36,696 nt of DNA from Sphingobacteriaceae bacterium. Lineage in GTDB: Bacteria > Bacteroidota > Bacteroidia > Sphingobacteriales > Sphingobacteriaceae. Where the stretch lies: assembly GCA_903644075.1 (NCBI GenBank), contig CAHJXH010000013.1:1-36696 (forward strand), read 5' to 3'. Position 1 is the stretch's first letter. Each line of letters opens with the position of its first letter. Positions 1,992-36,696 of this stretch are shown here, one piece after another. The position numbers and the translations under genes were made by a program. The notes under the pieces were generated by a model. That model was not told where the DNA came from, did no database searches, and saw only the letters and a program-made list of their open reading frames with translations.

Positions 1992-2382
1992 AGTTTATTA
2001 ATTTGAGTAATTAGTTTGTTAGTTTTTGCCCTGATGCGCATTTCGTAACGCCGATTGACATCAATTCGAAATACTTTTCAAGAAAAGTAAAGCTTTTTGC
2101 TTAAAAACAGACAAGATCATATTGAATTAACAAAAAAGTTACGGCTTGAATGATAGAAAACTATTTAGAGGACTGCATTTTTAACAACTCATCAATTTAT
2201 TCTGTCATTCTGAACGATAGTGAAGAATCTTCTGTGCTCTGTATAGCGCGACTGCTTGGCGAAGAAGATTCTTCAATTCATTCAGAATGACAAAACAGTA
2301 AGGATAATAAAGTAGAGATGAATAACAAAAAGGATCAGGATAAAAAGAAGTTCAGTTAAATAAATCTTCTTACCTTTTAATC
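1992..2382. other. Intergenic region with one palindromic repeat
   Basis: These 391 bases separate the divergent protease and lipoprotein genes. They are AT-rich near both starts. The only organised structure is the palindromic element at 2203-2292. A 46-codon reading frame across that element has no recognisable features and is not called. No clear TAnnTTTG promoter box was found for either gene. Confidence 0.6.
2203..2292. repeat. Palindromic interspersed repeat (TGTCATTCTGAA type)
   Basis: The outer arms TGTCATTCTGAA (2203-2214) and TTCAGAATGACA (2281-2292) are perfectly complementary over 12 bases. A second perfect pair lies inside: GAAGAATCTTC (2222-2232) with GAAGATTCTTC (2264-2274). 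The element is about 90 bases and would fold into one long imperfect hairpin. It shares the TGTCAT...ATGACA ends with the elements at 4670, 12882, 19015 and 34940. Confidence 0.85.
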
Positions 2383-4603: not shown

Positions 4604-4669
4604 TATCTGCAGGATTGTGTACAGCTTAAAGATAGCAATAAAAGCTTTTTGTTATGCCGTTTCCCGTAT

Positions 4670-4761
4670 TGTCATTGCGAGGAGGAACTACGTGGCAGCC
4701 TCGTAGCCAGACAGATCGAAGAATGCAAGCGACGATGTTGCCACGCTATCGCTCAATGACA
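4670..4761. repeat. Palindromic interspersed repeat (TGTCATTG type)
   Basis: The ends TGTCATTG (4670-4677) and CAATGACA (4754-4761) are complementary, and inner CGTGGCA and TGCCACG pair. The element fills most of the gap between the membrane-protein gene and the end of the dehydrogenase gene. It belongs to the same family as the elements at 12882-12960 and 19015-19111 (shared GTCATTGCGAGGAGGAAC-like ends). Confidence 0.85.
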
Positions 4762-12830: not shown

Positions 12831-12881
12831 TGAATTTCGGAGGTCGGATTTTCGATTTCGGATTTACTATACACCCAACAC

Positions 12882-12960
12882 GTCATTGCAGGTACGAAGC
12901 AATCGCGAACTGTGCAGAGCCCCTCTGTAAGTCGGGGATTGCTTCGTTCCTCGCAATGAC
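12882..12960. repeat. Palindromic interspersed repeat (GTCATTGC type)
   Basis: GTCATTGC (12882-12889) pairs with GCAATGAC (12953-12960), and inside ACGAAGCAATC (12894-12904) pairs perfectly with GATTGCTTCGT (12937-12947). The sequence GTCATTGC...ACGAAGCAATC is the widely seen bacterial palindrome. It occupies the gap between ligA and the DUF5686 gene (12831-13127). A 79-codon frame through it is not considered a gene. Confidence 0.88.
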
Positions 12961-18916: not shown

Positions 18917-19014
18917 GATATTAATATTTAAAATAGATATATTAATTATTAAGCAAAAGACAGGCCAACTTTAAGAGAAACAAGAAGTGAGAGACAAGAA
19001 ACAAGAAAGTAAAT

Positions 19015-19111
19015 TTGTCATTGCGAGCGATAGCGTGGCAATCTCTTAACTATACAGATCGAATAAGCATTGGCGACGAGATTGCCATGTCGTTCCTCCT
19101 CGCAATGACAA
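19015..19111. repeat. Palindromic interspersed repeat (TTGTCATTGCGAG type)
   Basis: TTGTCATTGCGAG (19015-19027) and CTCGCAATGACAA (19099-19111) are perfect 13-base complements. TGGCAATCTC (19036-19045) pairs with GAGATTGCCA (19078-19087). This is the best preserved copy of the family in the window. It lies just past the end of the acetyltransferase gene. A short run of ACAAGA-like units (18973-19010) precedes it. Confidence 0.92.
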
Positions 19112-29604: not shown

Positions 29605-30924
29605 ATGAAGAAACTCATAACCACCATATTTTCCTTGTGCTTCATCTTCAGCACAGGTATAGCCCAAACCCTGCCTACCAATACCACCACCTCTTTTATG
29701 GTAAATGGTTTAAAGGTAATATTTAAGCCAACCGTTAAAGACGTGATCAGCGTGCGGATGTATTTCCGTGGCGGGGTTTACAATTATCCCGGATCAATGG
29801 CCGGGATAGAAAGCATGGCCTTGAAAGCTGCTACCGAATGCGGCACCAAGAAATACAATGCCGATAAATTTCGCGACCTGGCCGATGAATTTGGCGTAGC
29901 GATAGGCGGTTCGGCCACTTACGATTATGGCAATATTGGTATTGATTGCGTTGCTAAATATTTTAACCAAAGCTGGGACCTGTTTGCCGAGGCCATTAAC
30001 AACCCAATATTTGACAATGCCGAAGTACAGCTATTAAAAAGCAAACAAATAACCCTGATTAACGGCCAGCAAAGCGACCCCGACCAGCACCTCGACAACC
30101 TGCAGGTACAAACCGCCTTTGCCGGTACACCTTACGCTACCGACCCGGACGGCACGGAGCAAAGCCTCACCGCTTTAAGCAGCACCGACCTGAAAGAATA
30201 TTACTATAACCTGCTCAACAAAAACCGCATGTTTATTGTGGTAGCCGGTAATATTAGTCGCCAGCAAATTGAGGAGAAGATCAAAGCCTCTTTCGCTTCG
30301 CTCCCATCAAAGCCGTACACCGCACCTGTTCGCCAGGCACCGGTTTGGAAAGAGAATAAAGTTTATGTAGAAAGCCGTGCGCTGGCCACCAATTATATAA
30401 GCGCAGCCTTTAATGCGCCGCCGGTAAACAGCCCGGAGGAGTTTTTAGCTTATCGCATGGGTATCTCTGCCTTTGGTGGAACACTTTTTAACGAGCTCCG
30501 CACTAAACTCAATTTATCTTATGATCCCGGCGCTTATGCAGTATCGCAACTCATGTCGTATGGCATCATCCACGTAAGCACCAACAGCCCTAAAGAAGCC
30601 ATAGAAGCAACCGCCCGCACATTGAGCCGCCTGAAAGAACTCGGCATATCAGACGAAGGGTTAAAATATTTGAAAGGCAGCTTCATCACCTCTAACTACA
30701 TTAAAGAGCAGGGTTCGGGTGCAATCACCGCCAACCTCGGTTCGGCCGAAATTAATGGTGGCTGGGAATATGCAGATAAGCTGCCCGCTATGATTAATGC
30801 CATAACCGTTGACCAAATAAACGCAGCCATGCTCAAGTACATTAGTGGCCTTCGCTGGACTTACATCGGCGACCCTGAACTTGCAAAAAAAGCCGAAGAG
30901 GCTTTTAGCACCCAGGTGCATTAA
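29605..30924 (+). CDS. M16 family peptidase, non-catalytic subunit
   Basis: The 439-residue exported protein (signal peptide MKKLITTIFSLCFIFSTGIAQ) has the M16 fold with FKPTVKDVISVRMYFRGGVYNYPGSMAGIESMALKAATECGTKKY. Where the catalytic partner has HLYEH, this one has the segment AGIESMAL, with no zinc ligands. The later part (NYISAAFNAPPVNSPEEFLAYRM, LFNELRTKLNLSYDPGAY) keeps the conserved R/Y-rich substrate-binding block of M16 C-terminal domains. In known M16B enzymes one active and one inactive half form a heterodimer. This gene very probably supplies the second half for the upstream gene, 153 bases away. Confidence 0.9.
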   Translation: MKKLITTIFSLCFIFSTGIAQTLPTNTTTSFMVNGLKVIFKPTVKDVISVRMYFRGGVYNYPGSMAGIESMALKAATECGTKKYNADKFRDLADEFGVAIGGSATYDYGNIGIDCVAKYFNQSWDLFAEAINNPIFDNAEVQLLKSKQITLINGQQSDPDQHLDNLQVQTAFAGTPYATDPDGTEQSLTALSSTDLKEYYYNLLNKNRMFIVVAGNISRQQIEEKIKASFASLPSKPYTAPVRQAPVWKENKVYVESRALATNYISAAFNAPPVNSPEEFLAYRMGISAFGGTLFNELRTKLNLSYDPGAYAVSQLMSYGIIHVSTNSPKEAIEATARTLSRLKELGISDEGLKYLKGSFITSNYIKEQGSGAITANLGSAEINGGWEYADKLPAMINAITVDQINAAMLKYISGLRWTYIGDPELAKKAEEAFSTQVH

Positions 30925-30955
30925 TGGTTTATGTATTCACAAATTTGATCGGCCT

Positions 30956-31067
30956 AAATTATACCCCTTATTAACATTAGTGGTATTGGCAATACCGTTG
31001 CATTCCCCTTTTAAAGGGAAAACTACTGCCTGTGCAAATGCAAAAACGTTCACAAGAGGTATAATTT
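30956..31067 (+). repeat. MITE-like repeat, copy B
   Basis: The element is 112 bases long with terminal inverted repeats AAATTATACCCCTT (30956-30969) and AAGAGGTATAATTT (31054-31067), matching at 13 of 14 positions. A central near-palindrome TTCCCCTTTTAAAGGGAA lies at 31003-31020. No coding sequence is inside, as expected for a miniature inverted-repeat element. Copy A lies upstream of the M16 pair in the same orientation. Confidence 0.8.
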
Positions 31068-31144
31068 CTGCTGATTAAACTTGTGCTACCGATACTTGCT
31101 TCAATAAACGGTAGCAATTAGGACGATCAGTTTAGGTCCGTATT

Positions 31145-31615
31145 TTAATGGGGGAACGGGTGTATAATGGCGAAATAATAAGTCCAGGCGATGAGTAATA
31201 ACTGCATCGGGATACGGAAGATAAGGTAAAACACTCCCGGGCCGCTAAAGTCGCCTTCTTCCATATTTACCCGGCGCTGCGTTGCATACACATTGGCCGG
31301 TAGCATGGCTATTAAAAATATCACCAGTAAATAACCTGCTGTTACACGGGTTTCATAGATCATGATGCCGGCCGCACCTACAATTTCGATGACGCCGGTA
31401 ATAAGTATTATGAGTTTTTTTAGCGCATTGGGGATAAAAGGTGGCACCATCAAAATCATGCCTTTTATAAAAACAAAGTGTGCTATCGAAGTAAACAACA
31501 GCATTACGCATAAGGCCAGCCGACCGCTAAAATACAAATCTTCCCGCTGCTGAAATGCGTAGGTAAACAGCATCGATAAGGCAAAAACAGACACTAAAAC
31601 AATGAGTGGTTTCAT
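31145..31615 (-). CDS. DoxX-like membrane protein
   Basis: From the ATG at 31615 the protein has 156 residues and four hydrophobic segments (LIVLVSVFALSMLFTYAF, ALCVMLLFTSIAHFVFI, LIILITGVIEIVGAAGIMIYE, AGYLLVIFLIAMLPANVYA). GVIEIVGAAGIMI and the four-helix pattern are typical of DoxX/DoxD-like proteins, whose functions vary and are mostly unknown. An upstream ATG at 31657 would add 14 residues. It stands alone between repeat B and the aldolase gene. Confidence 0.75.
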   Translation of the reverse strand: MKPLIVLVSVFALSMLFTYAFQQREDLYFSGRLALCVMLLFTSIAHFVFIKGMILMVPPFIPNALKKLIILITGVIEIVGAAGIMIYETRVTAGYLLVIFLIAMLPANVYATQRRVNMEEGDFSGPGVFYLIFRIPMQLLLIAWTYYFAIIHPFPH

Positions 31616-31817
31616 GTTAAAAGCATAAGGGGTAAATAATTTACAATTGGTTAACATAAATGTAGTTAATCTGTTGTTTTTCTGTACCCTTTCACTAAAC
31701 TTTTTTCAACAAAAAATAGCGGTAGCCTGTTGTTATGTGTAAGTTTGATATAAAGCCCGCTAAACTTTTTCTTCTGAAGAATGCCGACAATCCGCTGTTA
31801 GAAACTCAATATTATTT

Positions 31818-31848
31818 TTTGAAACAGACAGGCGTTGTTTAGTTTTTG
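31818..31848 (+). promoter_or_regulatory. Probable Bacteroidota promoter for the aldolase gene
   Basis: TTTG (31818-31821) lies 19 bases ahead of AGTTTTTG (31841-31848; TAGTTTTTG with the preceding T). This approximates the Bacteroidota -33/-7 layout TTTG-N19-TAnnTTTG, with one mismatch in the -7 box. It lies about 53 bases before the start codon, which leaves a normal leader. Confidence 0.45.
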
Positions 31849-31901
31849 GAGGAGGAAAAATTTAGGGATCAATATCATCATACCCTTAACAAAACATAGC
31901 T

Positions 31902-32960
31902 ATGTCGTACCAAAAAATCACAGAGCTTTTAGGCAAAGACGCCGATTCGCTTTTAAACCACGAATGCAAAACTTTTTCTAAAGATCTATTACACGCCCCC
32001 TCGCCCGATTTTATCGATAATGTATTTTTAAACACTAACCGCAATCCGCAGGTACTACGCAACCTGGCTGCCATATACAATCACGGCCGCCTGGGTGGCA
32101 CAGGTTATTTATCGATACTCCCGGTTGATCAGGGCATCGAACATACCGCAGGCGCATCATTCGCCAAAAACCCGATGTATTTCGACCCCGAAAACATTAT
32201 CAAACTGGCTCTCGAAGCAGGATCAAACGCTGTGGCTACCACCTTTGGCAACCTGGCCAGCGTGGCACGTAAGTATGCCCATAAAATTCCTTTCCTGGTA
32301 AAGCTGAACCATAACGAGCTGCTCACCTACCCTACCAAGTACGACCAGATTATGTTTGGTTCGGTTGATGATGCCTGGAACCTGGGCGCAGCTGCCGTAG
32401 GAGCAACGATTTATTTCGGATCTGAAGAATCAGACCGCCAGATTGTGGAAGTAGCCAAAGCTTTTGAGCGCGCACATCAGCTAGGCTTGCCTACCGTTTT
32501 ATGGTGCTATACCCGCAACAACGGCTTCAAAAAAGATGGCGTTAATTACGAAACCGCAACAGATATAACCGCACAAGCCAACCATATTGGCGTAACCATA
32601 CAAGCCGATATCATCAAACAAAAAATGCCTGATGTAAACGGCGGCTTTAGCACCATCGGTTTCTCTAAAACAGACCCATTGATGTACAGCGAATTGGTTA
32701 CCGATAACCCGATTGATATGTGCCGCTACCAGGTAGCCAACTGCTACATGGGGCGTGCCGGATTGATCAACTCAGGCGGTGAGTCAAAAGGTGCATCAGA
32801 TTTAGCTGATTCTGTGAAAAATGCCGTAATCAACAAACGCGCAGGTGGCTCAGGGCTGATACTTGGTCGCCGCTCTTTCCAGCGTCCATTTGCTGAGGGT
32901 GTTGATTTTTTGCATACCATACAGGATGTATATCTGGAGAAAGAGATTGGCTTAGCTTAA
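31902..32960 (+). CDS. fbaB: Class I fructose-bisphosphate aldolase (DhnA/FbaB family)
   Basis: The 352-residue TIM-barrel protein matches the bacterial class I (Schiff-base) aldolase family, with YLSILPVDQGIEHTAGASF near residue 70-88 and KLNHNELLTYP. Lys239 in the segment TIQADIIKQKMP is the likely Schiff-base lysine. SGGESKGASDLADSVKNAVINKRAGGSGLILGRRSFQR near the end is the phosphate-binding end. It splits fructose 1,6-bisphosphate to glyceraldehyde phosphate and dihydroxyacetone phosphate, and the reverse. It is complete and monocistronic by appearance. Confidence 0.92.
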   Translation: MSYQKITELLGKDADSLLNHECKTFSKDLLHAPSPDFIDNVFLNTNRNPQVLRNLAAIYNHGRLGGTGYLSILPVDQGIEHTAGASFAKNPMYFDPENIIKLALEAGSNAVATTFGNLASVARKYAHKIPFLVKLNHNELLTYPTKYDQIMFGSVDDAWNLGAAAVGATIYFGSEESDRQIVEVAKAFERAHQLGLPTVLWCYTRNNGFKKDGVNYETATDITAQANHIGVTIQADIIKQKMPDVNGGFSTIGFSKTDPLMYSELVTDNPIDMCRYQVANCYMGRAGLINSGGESKGASDLADSVKNAVINKRAGGSGLILGRRSFQRPFAEGVDFLHTIQDVYLEKEIGLA

Positions 32961-32987
32961 GAGATAAAGGATAAAAGACTTTTGGAC

Positions 32988-33058
32988 GAAGGACAAATGA
33001 GGGATATTGCTATCCATCTTTTGTCCTTTGTCTTTATTCTAAAAATTCTTAATCCATG
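32988..33058 (+). repeat. Hairpin-bearing direct repeat, copy 1
   Basis: GAAGGACAAATGAGGGATAT begins this ~70-base repeat, followed by a complementary TTTTGTCCTTTG arm. The same sequence recurs at 33176-33247 with about 85% identity by eye. This copy begins 27 bases after the aldolase stop. Confidence 0.8.
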
Positions 33059-33061
33059 GCT

Positions 33062-33165
33062 GTCGCAAGTTTAGCGCGCGTAACTTGTGACTTAACTACT
33101 GTAAGCTTCCAGCTTACGTAAGGTGAAACCTTACCCAAGTATAACCACAGGTTGGAAACCTGCGG
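33062..33165 (+). repeat. Array of four consecutive hairpins
   Basis: Four stems follow each other: GTCGCAAGTT/AACTTGTGAC (33062-33091), GTAAGCT-TCC-AGCTTAC (33101-33117), GTAAGGT-GAA-ACCTTAC (33118-33134), and CCACAGGTT-GGA-AACCTGCGG (33145-33165). The last three all have three-base loops, and hairpins two and three abut directly. The array lies between the two direct repeats. Confidence 0.8.
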
Positions 33166-33175
33166 TAGCGAATAT

Positions 33176-33247
33176 GAAGGACAAATGAGGGATATTACTA
33201 TTCATCATTTGTCCTTCATCTTTAATCCAAAAATCCTTAATCTATTT
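33176..33247 (+). repeat. Hairpin-bearing direct repeat, copy 2
   Basis: GAAGGACAAATGA (33176-33188) and TCATTTGTCCTTC (33205-33217) pair perfectly over 13 bases. The copy runs on to about 33247 and into the last codons and stop (33242) of the M28 peptidase gene on the other strand. Confidence 0.8.
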
Positions 33248-34891
33248 CAAATAACTTTCCCTCACCGCCTTAAACTCCGAACCTTGTTTCCATTGCGGCC
33301 ACTCGTTGCTATAGGCCAGTTTTTTGCCGACTAAGAAAACAAGTTGCAAATCCTGGATAGTACCGCTTACATCCCATTTGGCGGCGTCATATTCGTCGTT
33401 GGGTTTGTGGTATACGTTGCTGTTGTAGTATTCGTGCATTTTAAGGCCAGCTTCTTTACCCTGGACTACCAGGTCGGTACCGGTTTCGATGTAGAGGGCC
33501 GGGATACCCACTTTGGCAAAATTGAAATGGTCCGAACGGAAATACATGCCTTTTGATGGCACTGCTTCGGGCTCAATATGTCGGCCTTGTGTTTTGGCAG
33601 CCTCCGACAAGTAATCTTCCAATTGCGATTGTCCGTACCCTACTACCGAAATATCTTTGGTTTTTCCGTAAGGGTAAAACATATCCATGTTAATATCAGC
33701 CACTGTTTTATTTTTCGGGAAAGCCGGATTCTCGGCATAATAGGCCGATCCCCATAAACCCTGCTCTTCTGCCGTAACCGACAAGAAGATGATGGTGCGC
33801 TCGGGCTTAGTCTTCATGCTCTTAAAGGCTTTGGCCAGTTCCAGCAAACCTGCAGTTCCGCTGGCATTATCGATGGCGCCATTATAAATACTATCGCCTT
33901 TGGCATCTGGCTTACTGATACCGAAGTGGTCCCAATGGGCTGAATAAATAATGCACTCATCGGCATGTTTGGTACCCGTAATCTTAGCAATCACATTGTG
34001 CGACTGGTTATACTTGCAAGTAGTACTTAAACCAGTAGTAACATTTAAATTCATCAGGCTGCCTTTAAAGTCGGGAGCTAATGCCTTAGACAGCATGGTT
34101 TTATAATCAGTACCAATTGTGGTAAATAATTTCTCTGCAGATGGCAATGTCAACCATCCCTCGAAAGCACACTTATAACTTTCGTGGCCGCGCGGATCGA
34201 GGTATAATTTCGATGCTTTCCAGCTATTAGCAACCACGCTGAAACCATAGGCAGCAGGTGCAGTATCGTGAATAATTAAGCAGCCTTTGGCACCGTGTTT
34301 AGCCGCTTCATCGTATTTATAAGTCCAGCGGCCGTAGTAGGTCATGGTTTTACCTTTAAACTGTTTGGCATCATAATAACCCGGATCATTAACCAGCACT
34401 ACCACAATTTTACCCTTTACATCCAGCCCGGCATAATCATCGTGGTGAAACTCGGGTGCCGAGATGCCGAAACCGGCGAAAACCAGTTCTTCGTTCTTTA
34501 GGTCGATACGCGCATCTGTGCGGCGTGTCCACAAAACATAATCCTTTAACCCCTCCAAGTCGAAACTGGCATTGGCTCCCGTTACCTTCATCTGCGGATC
34601 GGGATTGGTATAGATAGATACCATTGGTACCGGCTGTAAATAGCTGCCCTTATTGCCTGGCTCTAAACCCAAAGCCTTAAACTGCCCTTGTAAATAATTG
34701 AGCGTAGCTGTTTCACCCGGGCTAAACGGCAGGCGTCCCTGCAATTTATCGGATGATACCTCGCTTACGTATTTACGGTAGCTGGCCTCGGTAAAGGAGT
34801 TTAGCCCATCGGTATTTTGAGCCAATGCCGGGTATAGGCTGCCGGTAAAGCAAGCGGCAAGCAGAGAGAGCTTTATGTTTTTGATATTCAT
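33242..34891 (-). CDS. Exported M28 family zinc aminopeptidase with PA domain
   Basis: The 549-residue protein has a signal peptide (MNIKNIKLSLLAACFTGSLYPALAQ). A PA-type insert spans about residues 130-260 (ELVFAGFGISAPEFHHDDYAGLDVKGKIVVVLVNDPGYYD...). The M28 peptidase domain follows, with zinc ligands likely at His319 (SAHWDH), Asp341 (GAIDNASG), Glu375/Glu376 (VTAEEQGLWGS), Asp403 (DINMDM) and His495 (YHKPNDEYD). The set is complete, so it should be active as an aminopeptidase or glutaminyl-type enzyme in the periplasm. It is transcribed alone, and its 3' end lies inside a repeat. Confidence 0.93.
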   Translation of the reverse strand: MNIKNIKLSLLAACFTGSLYPALAQNTDGLNSFTEASYRKYVSEVSSDKLQGRLPFSPGETATLNYLQGQFKALGLEPGNKGSYLQPVPMVSIYTNPDPQMKVTGANASFDLEGLKDYVLWTRRTDARIDLKNEELVFAGFGISAPEFHHDDYAGLDVKGKIVVVLVNDPGYYDAKQFKGKTMTYYGRWTYKYDEAAKHGAKGCLIIHDTAPAAYGFSVVANSWKASKLYLDPRGHESYKCAFEGWLTLPSAEKLFTTIGTDYKTMLSKALAPDFKGSLMNLNVTTGLSTTCKYNQSHNVIAKITGTKHADECIIYSAHWDHFGISKPDAKGDSIYNGAIDNASGTAGLLELAKAFKSMKTKPERTIIFLSVTAEEQGLWGSAYYAENPAFPKNKTVADINMDMFYPYGKTKDISVVGYGQSQLEDYLSEAAKTQGRHIEPEAVPSKGMYFRSDHFNFAKVGIPALYIETGTDLVVQGKEAGLKMHEYYNSNVYHKPNDEYDAAKWDVSGTIQDLQLVFLVGKKLAYSNEWPQWKQGSEFKAVRESYLK

Positions 34892-34939
34892 GGACTGCGT
34901 TAGTTGTTTGAACTGGCAAAATACGCATTGATTTTCTTT

Positions 34940-35030
34940 TTGTCATATTGAGCGATAGCGAAATATCTTCTTCACCCTGTAAGATCGCTAATAAATCGCA
35001 GAAGATCCTTCACTACGTTCTGGATGACAA
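34940..35030. repeat. Palindromic interspersed repeat, diverged copy
   Basis: TTGTCAT at the left end and ATGACAA at 35024-35030 are complementary. The inside (AGCGATAGCGAAATATCTTC ... GCAGAAGATCCTTC) resembles the element at 2203-2292 but pairs less well. It is a decayed member of the family. Confidence 0.75.
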
Positions 35031-35239
35031 ATTTTTCATTTTTTTAATTGAATAATTAAACTATTAACACCGTTCCGAAAACCCAGTCCGGAAAACTGCA
35101 ACAAATTTTTCTCTTATCTATTTCATAATTAATTGGCTTGTTAATGCCTTCTGCATTAAAGGGCATTACAAAGTAAATAAACAGGATAATAAGTTTTCGT
35201 GGCGCAACTGTGTCACAAAGCAAAACCCACATTAATTAG

Positions 35240-35247
35240 TACTTTTG
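35240..35247 (+). promoter_or_regulatory. Possible promoter -7 box (TACTTTTG) for ubiD
   Basis: TACTTTTG matches TAnnTTTG and lies 150 bases before the start codon. There is no good -33 TTTG at the expected distance. If used, the long palindrome at 35271-35370 would be in the transcript leader. Confidence 0.3.
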
Positions 35248-35270
35248 GGGCAGTCTGAATGGCCCGTGTG

Positions 35271-35370
35271 ATTCCCCTCTTGAGAGGGGGTGCAGGGGTG
35301 TGTCTTTCCGCTTTGATAACACACCCCTTCCATCACACAATTCCGGCCCGCCCCCTTTCAAGAGGGGAAT
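35271..35370. repeat. Long GC-rich inverted repeat upstream of ubiD
   Basis: ATTCCCCTCTTGAGAGGGGG (35271-35290) pairs with CCCCCTTTCAAGAGGGGAAT (35351-35370), 19 of 20. Inside, AGGGGTGTGT (35294-35303) pairs perfectly with ACACACCCCT (35319-35328). It ends 26 bases before the ATG. It could be a mobile palindromic repeat or a structured leader. Confidence 0.8.
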
Positions 35371-35396
35371 TGAAAAGCTCAGATTTATAGCATTAC

Positions 35397-36086
35397 ATGG
35401 GTTACAAAAGCTTACAAGCCTGCATTACCGATCTGGAAAAACACGGTCACCTTATCCGCATCAAGGAAGAAGTTGACCCTTATTTAGAAATGGCAGCCAT
35501 TCACCTGCGGGTGTTTGAGCAGCAAGGGCCTGCTTTGCTTTTCGAAAATGTAAGGGGCAGCAAGTTCCCTGCGGTATCAAATCTGTTTGGTACGCTGGAG
35601 CGGTCGGAATTTATTTTCAGGGATACGCTGGAGAAGATCAAGACGTTGGTTGACATTAAAAGCGACCCCCTGAAGGCAATTAAGAACCCTATCAAATACG
35701 CTAATGTTGCCATGACTGCCCTCTCGGCCTTACCCATGAAAGTGAGCAGCAGCCATATTAAGAACTTCAGCAAAACCACCATCGATGCACTGCCGCAAAT
35801 TGTGAACTGGCCAATGGATGGTGGCCCTTTTGTAACCATGCCCCAGGTTTATACCGAGGATATGGACAAGCCCGGCATTATGAACGCCAACCTGGGCATG
35901 TACCGCATTCAGCTGGGGGGTAATGATTATATCCAGAACGAGGAGATCGGCCTGCATTATCAGTTGCACCGCGGTATCGGCATCCATCAAACCAAAGCCA
36001 ATGCCAAAGGCCAACCACTAAAGGTGAGCATATTTGTAGGCGGCCCGCCATCGCACCCGGTAGCGGCCGTAATGCCATTGCCCGAA
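35397..36086 (+). CDS. ubiD: UbiD-family decarboxylase, truncated at a chimeric junction
   Basis: The recognisable protein is the first ~230 residues of a UbiD-type decarboxylase (family length about 490-620). MGYKSLQACITDLEKHGHLIRI, GPALLFENVRGSKFPAVSNLFGTLERSE, MNANLGMYRIQ (Arg170, prenyl-FMN binding) and YQLHRGIGIH followed by VGGPPSHPVAAVMPLPE are the conserved blocks in their normal order. The enzyme decarboxylates a (poly)prenylated 4-hydroxybenzoate or related aromatic acid, in quinone synthesis, with a prenyl-FMN cofactor. After Glu230 the frame runs on for 33 residues of antisense phospho-sugar mutase sequence. It is therefore partial, and probably by misjoin. Confidence 0.85.
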
Positions 36087-36424
36087 AAAATGCCGGCCAC
36101 GATTTCCGCAAACTTACGTGAGTTGTTGCGCGAGTCGTGGGCGATGGCGACTTTGATTTCCTGGTCGGGGAAGCTCTGCTTCAGGTAGTTGCACAGGCCC
36201 TGGGTGGCCATGCCCAGCGTGTAGCGGTTCATGCGGTTGGAGCCCGCGCCCATGATGCCGCGCAGGCCGCCTGTGCCAAACTCCAGGGTGCGGTAGAAGG
36301 CGTCGGTCAGCGCATCGTCTTGGCCGGAGGCCTGGAGCTGCTTTATTTCGGCTTGGGTATCAGCGTCGTAAGCAGGCGTGAGCCAGGTCGCGATGCGCTG
36401 CTGAACGTCGGGGGAGAGGGGCAT
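36071..36424 (-). CDS. Phospho-sugar mutase (PGM/PMM-like), N-terminal part only
   Basis: From the ATG at 36424 (MPLSPDVQQRIATWLTPAYD) about 118 residues are recognisable. LEFGTGGLRGIMGAGSNRMN and IKVAIAHDSRNNSRKFAEIVAGIFSGNGI are hallmark blocks of the alpha-D-phosphohexomutase family. The catalytic phosphoserine loop (TASHNP) lies further along in the family and is absent here because the frame breaks at 36071. Upstream in-frame ATGs (to 36520) add Phe- and Pro-rich sequence unlike the family. The gene is high in GC with third-position G/C, unlike the rest of the window, which suggests a Hymenobacter-like source. Confidence 0.85.
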
Positions 36425-36535
36425 GGGAAGAAAGAAAAAAGAGGGTGTAGAGGTCAGAAACGGCCGTAAAGGAAAGAGGTTCGGCACCAGGAAACCAAAC
36501 CCGCCGCAGGGGGCCGCCACCGGCCGCGCCGCCGG

Positions 36536-36696
36536 TTAAAGGACCGTTATCTTTTGCGACACGACCCCGTGCGCCGACTGGAGCTTGAGTACGTACTGCC
36601 CGGCTTCTACCGGGCTTAGGTCGAGGTCGAGGGTCAGCTGGCCGCCCGCCAGCGGCACGGCCAGCACCACCTGGCCCAGCAGGTCTTGCAGCAGTA
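36536..36696 (-). CDS. C-terminal end of a T9SS-sorted protein (type A sorting domain)
   Basis: Read on the minus strand from the window edge, the last ~53 codons encode LLQDLLGQVVLAVPLAGG..., then LDLSPVEAGQYVLKLQSAHG and VVSQKITVL before the stop at 36536. This is the pattern of type IX secretion C-terminal sorting domains (DLxG ... G.Y.L.L ... G....K..V). The protein body lies outside the window, so its function is unknown. Its stop lies 112 bases upstream of the mutase ATG, on the same strand, in the same GC-rich foreign-looking block. Confidence 0.85.
   Translation of the reverse strand, partial: LLQDLLGQVVLAVPLAGGQLTLDLDLSPVEAGQYVLKLQSAHGVVSQKITVL

What the first reader, a model, noticed from the sequence alone, without database searches (positions are those of the whole stretch)
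36071..36086. Chimeric junction: ubiD fused to an antisense phospho-sugar mutase at a shared 16-base word
UbiD homology runs through MPLPE (to 36086) on the plus strand. Phospho-sugar mutase homology runs through IFSGNGI (to 36071) on the minus strand. Both genes lose recognisable sequence inside the same word, AATGCCATTGCCCGAA. Composition jumps from about 45% to about two-thirds GC by eye. No repeat, transposase, tRNA or integrase is present. Breaking two conserved genes at one microhomology is most simply an assembly or library chimera of two Bacteroidota, not a biological event.
Basis: partly seen in the sequence, partly recalled or inferred. Interest (0 to 1): 0.75.

Follow-up and report, generated by a model that had tools for sequence, protein, structure and literature searches.

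The report
Mis-joined contig end from two bacteria
The last 610 bases of this Mucilaginibacter contig are Hymenobacter-type DNA that was most likely glued on by mistake during metagenome assembly, because the missing second part of the interrupted ubiD gene sits at the start of another contig of the same draft genome; it is likely an ordinary artefact rather than biology.

Summary
The window is all of contig C13 of a 346-contig draft genome. Up to 36086 it is Mucilaginibacter-type: the ubiD start is 93% identical in protein to M. polytrichastri and gene order agrees over about 6 kb. From about 36065 to the end it is Hymenobacter-type: an antisense pgm start and the end of a T9SS-sorted protein gene, 81% identical along the tail to one genome of that genus. 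GC goes from 43% to 63%. Left-side homology stops at 36086 and right-side homology at about 36065, so up to 22 bases (not 16) fit both sides. The decisive result: the missing 3' part of ubiD starts at base 2 of contig C121 of the same draft genome, 62 bases past the break, followed by dapA and acs as in M. polytrichastri. So the native locus continues on C121 and the tail is foreign. No other genome searched shows the junction. Most likely an assembler misjoin at a short shared word; a template-switch library chimera is the close second. Raw reads were not available. Not a real biological feature; interest low.

The parts
35397..36086 (+). 5' part of ubiD (UbiD-family decarboxylase, 230 residues), native Mucilaginibacter-type DNA
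   Evidence: 93% aa identity to M. polytrichastri L018; Pfam UbiD_N and UbiD; matched in 13 of 13 same-genus genomes, own included
36065..36086 (.).
   Evidence: Position-by-position agreement with 76 left and 30 right relatives
36087..36696 (.). Foreign 610-base contig tail, Hymenobacter-type, 63% GC
   Evidence: 81% DNA identity from 36067 to 36694 with L162; 120 of 120 genomes of that genus match part of it
36065..36424 (-). First 120 codons of a Hymenobacter-type phospho-sugar mutase (pgm), cut off at the junction
   Evidence: 94% identity to P0091 over the 118 residues of 36071-36424; P0091 continues FSGNGITA; Pfam PGM_PMM_I
36536..36694 (-). 3' end of a T9SS type A sorting-domain protein gene, upstream of pgm as in L162
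   Evidence: NCBIfam TIGR04183 E=3.7e-5, 23.6 bits, cut-off 23; Pfam Por_Secre_tail 21.7 bits, below its cut-off of 27; same gene order in L162
35397..36188 (+). Fused open reading frame (263 aa) created by the join; its last 33 residues are antisense pgm
   Evidence: ORF list; of the 120 best of 1819 hits listed only the window's own copy (P0121) matches at least 99% of the ORF above 61% identity; no 6-residue word of the foreign end in the other 359 of the 360 proteins listed

Best explanation
This is most likely a false join made by the metagenome assembler, in which the end of a Mucilaginibacter contig, broken inside ubiD, was run on into Hymenobacter-type DNA through a word of up to 22 bases that both source genomes probably contain. 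Shown: the left 36,086 bases and the tail have different origins, the break falls inside two conserved genes at once, and the missing part of ubiD lies at the start of contig C121 of the same draft genome. Inferred: that the two real parent genomes both carried the word, and that the assembler (k-mer graph or overlap step) made the join rather than a template switch in the library. A shared word of about 21-22 bases is what a short-k graph step could confuse; that common assemblers start near k=21 is recalled, not looked up.
For: (1) The rest of ubiD (L018 residues 253-609, 89% identity, no stop) is at C121:5-1075 of the same draft genome. In 80 relatives the spacing MPLPE to EGF could be read 73 times and was always 22 residues, so C13 and C121 lack 62 bases between them. 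(2) C121 continues with dapA and acs, as M. polytrichastri does; C13 holds the upstream genes in L018's order. (3) Both homologies end within one 22-base zone. (4) The tail is a collinear Hymenobacter-type stretch, T9SS-protein end plus pgm start, 81% to L162 over 630 aligned positions. (5) GC shift 43% to 63%; of 40 ends of 20 other contigs none exceeds 49.5% GC over 600 bases, and C121's ends are 51% and 48%. (6) Of 149 genomes of the window's genus, own included, 140 match; in the rows shown the ubiD matches stop at 36086 or before except in the window's own genome. No row shown spans the junction among 395 class members or 120 genomes of the Hymenobacter-type genus, own excepted. (7) A 32-base junction pattern has no exact match in the viral contigs. 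(8) The rest of the Hymenobacter-type pgm was not found elsewhere in the draft genome. (9) Chimeric contigs are a documented problem, more likely for low to intermediate coverage species (PMC7881036, passages read; see also PMC8171044, passages read).
Against: No reads, coverage or assembly graph were available, so nothing here separates assembler from library. None of 30 Hymenobacter-type loci has the 16-base word exactly (9 differ at one base), and 4 of 80 left loci do, so the shared word in the true parents is inferred. The 62 bases between C13 and C121 are not held, so their adjacency is inferred from relatives. The end survey covered 20 of 345 other contigs. The metagenome contig collection, the best place to find an independent copy of the junction, could not be scanned.
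Confidence: 0.71

Rival explanations
1. Library chimera: two DNA fragments were fused by template switching during PCR or whole-genome amplification at the short shared word, and the chimeric molecule was then assembled faithfully.
For: A short compatible word at the crossover also suits template switching; a short foreign tail at a contig end.
Against: A rare chimeric molecule should be outvoted unless coverage is very low (reasoning; coverage was not measured).
Confidence: 0.24
2. Real recombination: a Mucilaginibacter lineage took up a Hymenobacter segment into ubiD, breaking the gene.
For: A contig spanning the junction exists; no other pgm was found in the draft genome; strain mixtures can split a locus between contigs; the tail runs to the contig end, so a second boundary cannot be seen.
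Against: The rest of ubiD begins 62 bases on, at the start of C121, with no foreign DNA there; the pgm is cut at the junction; no tRNA and no mobile-element domain in the junction ORFs scanned; not seen in the other 148 genomes of the genus, of which 139 match.
Confidence: 0.03
3. Binning error only: C13 as a whole is a real contig of another organism.
For: None beyond the foreign tail.
Against: The left part is collinear with M. polytrichastri over about 6 kb and its ubiD start is matched in 13 of 13 same-genus genomes; the change of origin is inside the contig, so binning cannot explain it.
Confidence: 0.01

Closest known systems
Inter-species chimeric contig in metagenome assemblies (as in PMC7881036 and PMC8171044, passages read)
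   Same: Non-overlapping parts of one contig match different taxa, with an abrupt change; here the missing continuation is also found on another contig.
   Different: Nothing known to differ; only the read-level proof is missing here.
Horizontal transfer junction by illegitimate (microhomology) recombination
   Same: Abrupt change of taxon and GC at a short compatible word.
   Different: Both genes are broken at the junction and the remainder of ubiD is present in the same draft genome without foreign DNA beside it.

Membership tests
Inter-species chimeric contig | Two non-overlapping parts match different taxa | tested here: met
Inter-species chimeric contig | True continuation of one side exists elsewhere in the same assembly | tested here: met
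   C121 starts with the missing ubiD part and goes on with dapA and acs
Inter-species chimeric contig | Junction absent from independent genomes | tested here: met
   395, 120 and 149 genomes, own included in 9 and 39; match lists cut after the best rows in 37 and 39; viral contigs. Metagenome contigs not scanned
Inter-species chimeric contig | Short exact word shared by both parents at the join | tested here: inconclusive
   A 22-base zone can fit both sets of relatives; the parents themselves are not held
Inter-species chimeric contig | No or abnormal read support across the join | not testable with these tools
   No reads available
Horizontally transferred segment | Complete foreign gene or mobile element with two boundaries | tested here: inconclusive
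   The tail has two truncated genes and one boundary, then the contig ends; no tRNA in the window, no mobile-element domain in the junction ORFs scanned, no foreign DNA at the start of C121

The most novel reading that the evidence does not exclude
A subpopulation of this Mucilaginibacter carries a real, recent insertion of Hymenobacter chromosomal DNA in ubiD, joined at a 22-base microhomology without any mobile element.
Probability: 0.03. Interest if true: 0.4.

Novelty: not a real feature. Interest (0 to 1): 0.06.

Why it matters
It matters only as hygiene. Anyone using this draft genome should end C13 at about 36064-36086, treat the 263-aa ubiD ORF and the pgm fragment as artefacts, and place C121 after C13. 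Left uncorrected, the tail would look like gene transfer between distant Bacteroidota and would lend the bin a pgm fragment that is not its own.

Tried and rejected
Real transfer was considered and set aside because the rest of ubiD is at the start of C121. Pure binning error was rejected because the change lies inside one contig. A second copy of ubiD was looked for: only the C13 and C121 pieces match. A native pgm was looked for with Hymenobacter-type and Mucilaginibacter queries: only the C13 fragment matches, which fits an 86% complete bin and decides nothing. Plasmid records gave a weak pgm match (Prevotella, 71%) and short matches, among them 27 bases in a Hymenobacter plasmid. Searching the draft genome with all of L162 gave the C13 tail and one 178-base match on C18 to another part of L162, outside pgm.

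and the third protein used the wrong reading frame of the tail's second gene, so their empty results mean nothing; searches repeated the family searches in the right frame. One search failed because I asked beyond the end of a short locus.

One search kept 76 of the 89 left loci given (13 did not pass the anchor filter) and all 30 right loci. One search read the ubiD spacing 73 times in 80 loci. One search looked at both ends of 20 of the 345 other contigs and at the 360 proteins listed, which are the best 120 of each. The match lists were cut by the tool after the best rows.

No fact changed.

Full report
What the window is. The window is the whole of contig C13 of a draft genome with 346 contigs, 4.67 Mb, 86.3% complete and 1.3% contaminated. 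The finding concerns its right-hand end.

Left side. From 35397 a UbiD-family decarboxylase gene reads on the plus strand. Its first 230 residues are 93% identical to Mucilaginibacter polytrichastri and 91% to M. agri. The window is collinear with M. polytrichastri (L018) from 30070 to 36086, in three pieces at 78-82% DNA identity. All 13 same-genus genomes, own included, match this ubiD stretch.

Right side. On the minus strand from 36424 the sequence encodes the start of a phospho-sugar mutase. By my reading, 40 of the 120 rows listed name an organism; 39 say Hymenobacter and one, P0115, is a MAG labelled Janthinobacterium lividum. The best hit to the window's own fragment is also named Hymenobacter sp. 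(P0241). The tool does not name the genus of G381 and its like; Hymenobacter is inferred from these names. In that genus 120 of 120 genomes match, and the best match begins at 36065-36074 in 119 of them (the other, G426, begins at 36117). One (G493, L162) matches along the tail from 36067 to 36694: 81% over 630 aligned positions, with the same two genes in the same order, a T9SS-sorted protein followed by pgm. The tail's second gene is recognised as a T9SS type A sorting domain by NCBIfam (TIGR04183, 23.6 bits, cut-off 23); the Pfam model gives 21.7 bits, below its cut-off of 27.

The junction. Column by column, agreement with 76 left relatives is 1.00 at most codon-fixed positions up to 36085 and 0.00 at 36087, 36088 and 36090. 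Agreement with 30 right relatives is 0.00 at 36060, 36061, 36063 and 36064, 0.33 at 36065 and 0.57 or more from 36066 to 36070. The stretch 36065-36086, 22 bases, can be read both ways. None of the 30 right loci carries the 16-base word exactly (9 differ at one base), and 4 of 80 left loci do, so that the two true parents shared it is an inference from relatives. I expect only a base or two of chance overlap at a random break (reasoning, not computed), so the join was probably guided by the word.

Composition. GC is 43.1% in 1-36070, 43.1% in C121 and 63.0% in 36087-36696. No 610-base stretch of the left part exceeds 53.3%. Of 40 ends from 20 other large contigs none exceeds 49.5% GC in its outer 600 bases; C121's two ends are 51% and 48%. 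By GC the C13 tail is the only such end among those examined.

The decisive result. Searching the same draft genome with the complete M. polytrichastri UbiD gives two pieces: residues 1-238 on C13 (its last residues run into the foreign part) and residues 253-609 on C121, starting at its fifth base. C121's open frame starts at base 2 (AEGFCIS...). In 80 relatives the spacing could be read 73 times, and 22 residues always separate MPLPE from EGF, so C13 and C121 lack 62 bases between them. After ubiD, C121 carries dapA and then acs, as M. polytrichastri does; both names are supported by NCBIfam models above cut-off in both genomes. C121 has an IS110-family transposase gene between the two. The native locus thus most likely runs C13 up to 36086, a 62-base gap, then C121. 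The 610-base tail has no place in it.

Independent occurrence. With queries across the junction, the only genome with a listed match that spans it is the window's own: of 395 class members, 120 genomes of the Hymenobacter-type genus and 149 of the window's genus, of which 140 match. Among the 120 best of 1819 proteins listed for the fused plus-strand ORF, only its own copy (P0121) matches at least 99% of the ORF above 61% identity, and no 6-residue word of its foreign end occurs in the other 359 of 360 proteins listed. A 32-base junction pattern has no exact match in the viral contigs. The metagenome contig collection could not be scanned.

Mechanism. The most likely mechanism is an assembler misjoin: at a contig end, perhaps poorly covered, the path crossed from one genome to another through a word of about 21-22 bases. 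That common assemblers start with k near 21 is recalled. A PCR or amplification template switch at the same word would look alike without reads. [quoted passage not shown]

Verdict.

Noticed in passing
L119 (contig C121) 2780-4165, minus: An IS110-family transposase gene (Pfam DEDD_Tnp_IS110 and Transposase_20) lies between dapA and acs; M. polytrichastri L018 has no ORF of 120 aa or more between the two genes.
   Followed up: partly
window 2203-2294, 4669-4761, 12880-12960, 19011-19110, 34939-35031: Dispersed imperfect repeats of about 80-100 bases, with partial relatives in C121 and L018 and some in inverted orientation.
   Followed up: partly
window 35259-35380: Stretch with an inverted repeat (20-nt arms, 95% complementary, 60 nt apart) just upstream of ubiD; 87% identical at the same place in M. 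polytrichastri.
   Followed up: partly
genome G000: No native phospho-sugar mutase gene was found in the draft genome with Hymenobacter-type or Mucilaginibacter queries, though several genomes of the genus show a pgm match; probably bin incompleteness.
   Followed up: partly
P0115: A protein named Janthinobacterium lividum (MAG) is 91.5% identical to the Hymenobacter-type pgm fragment, so that record is probably mislabelled or mis-binned.
   Followed up: no
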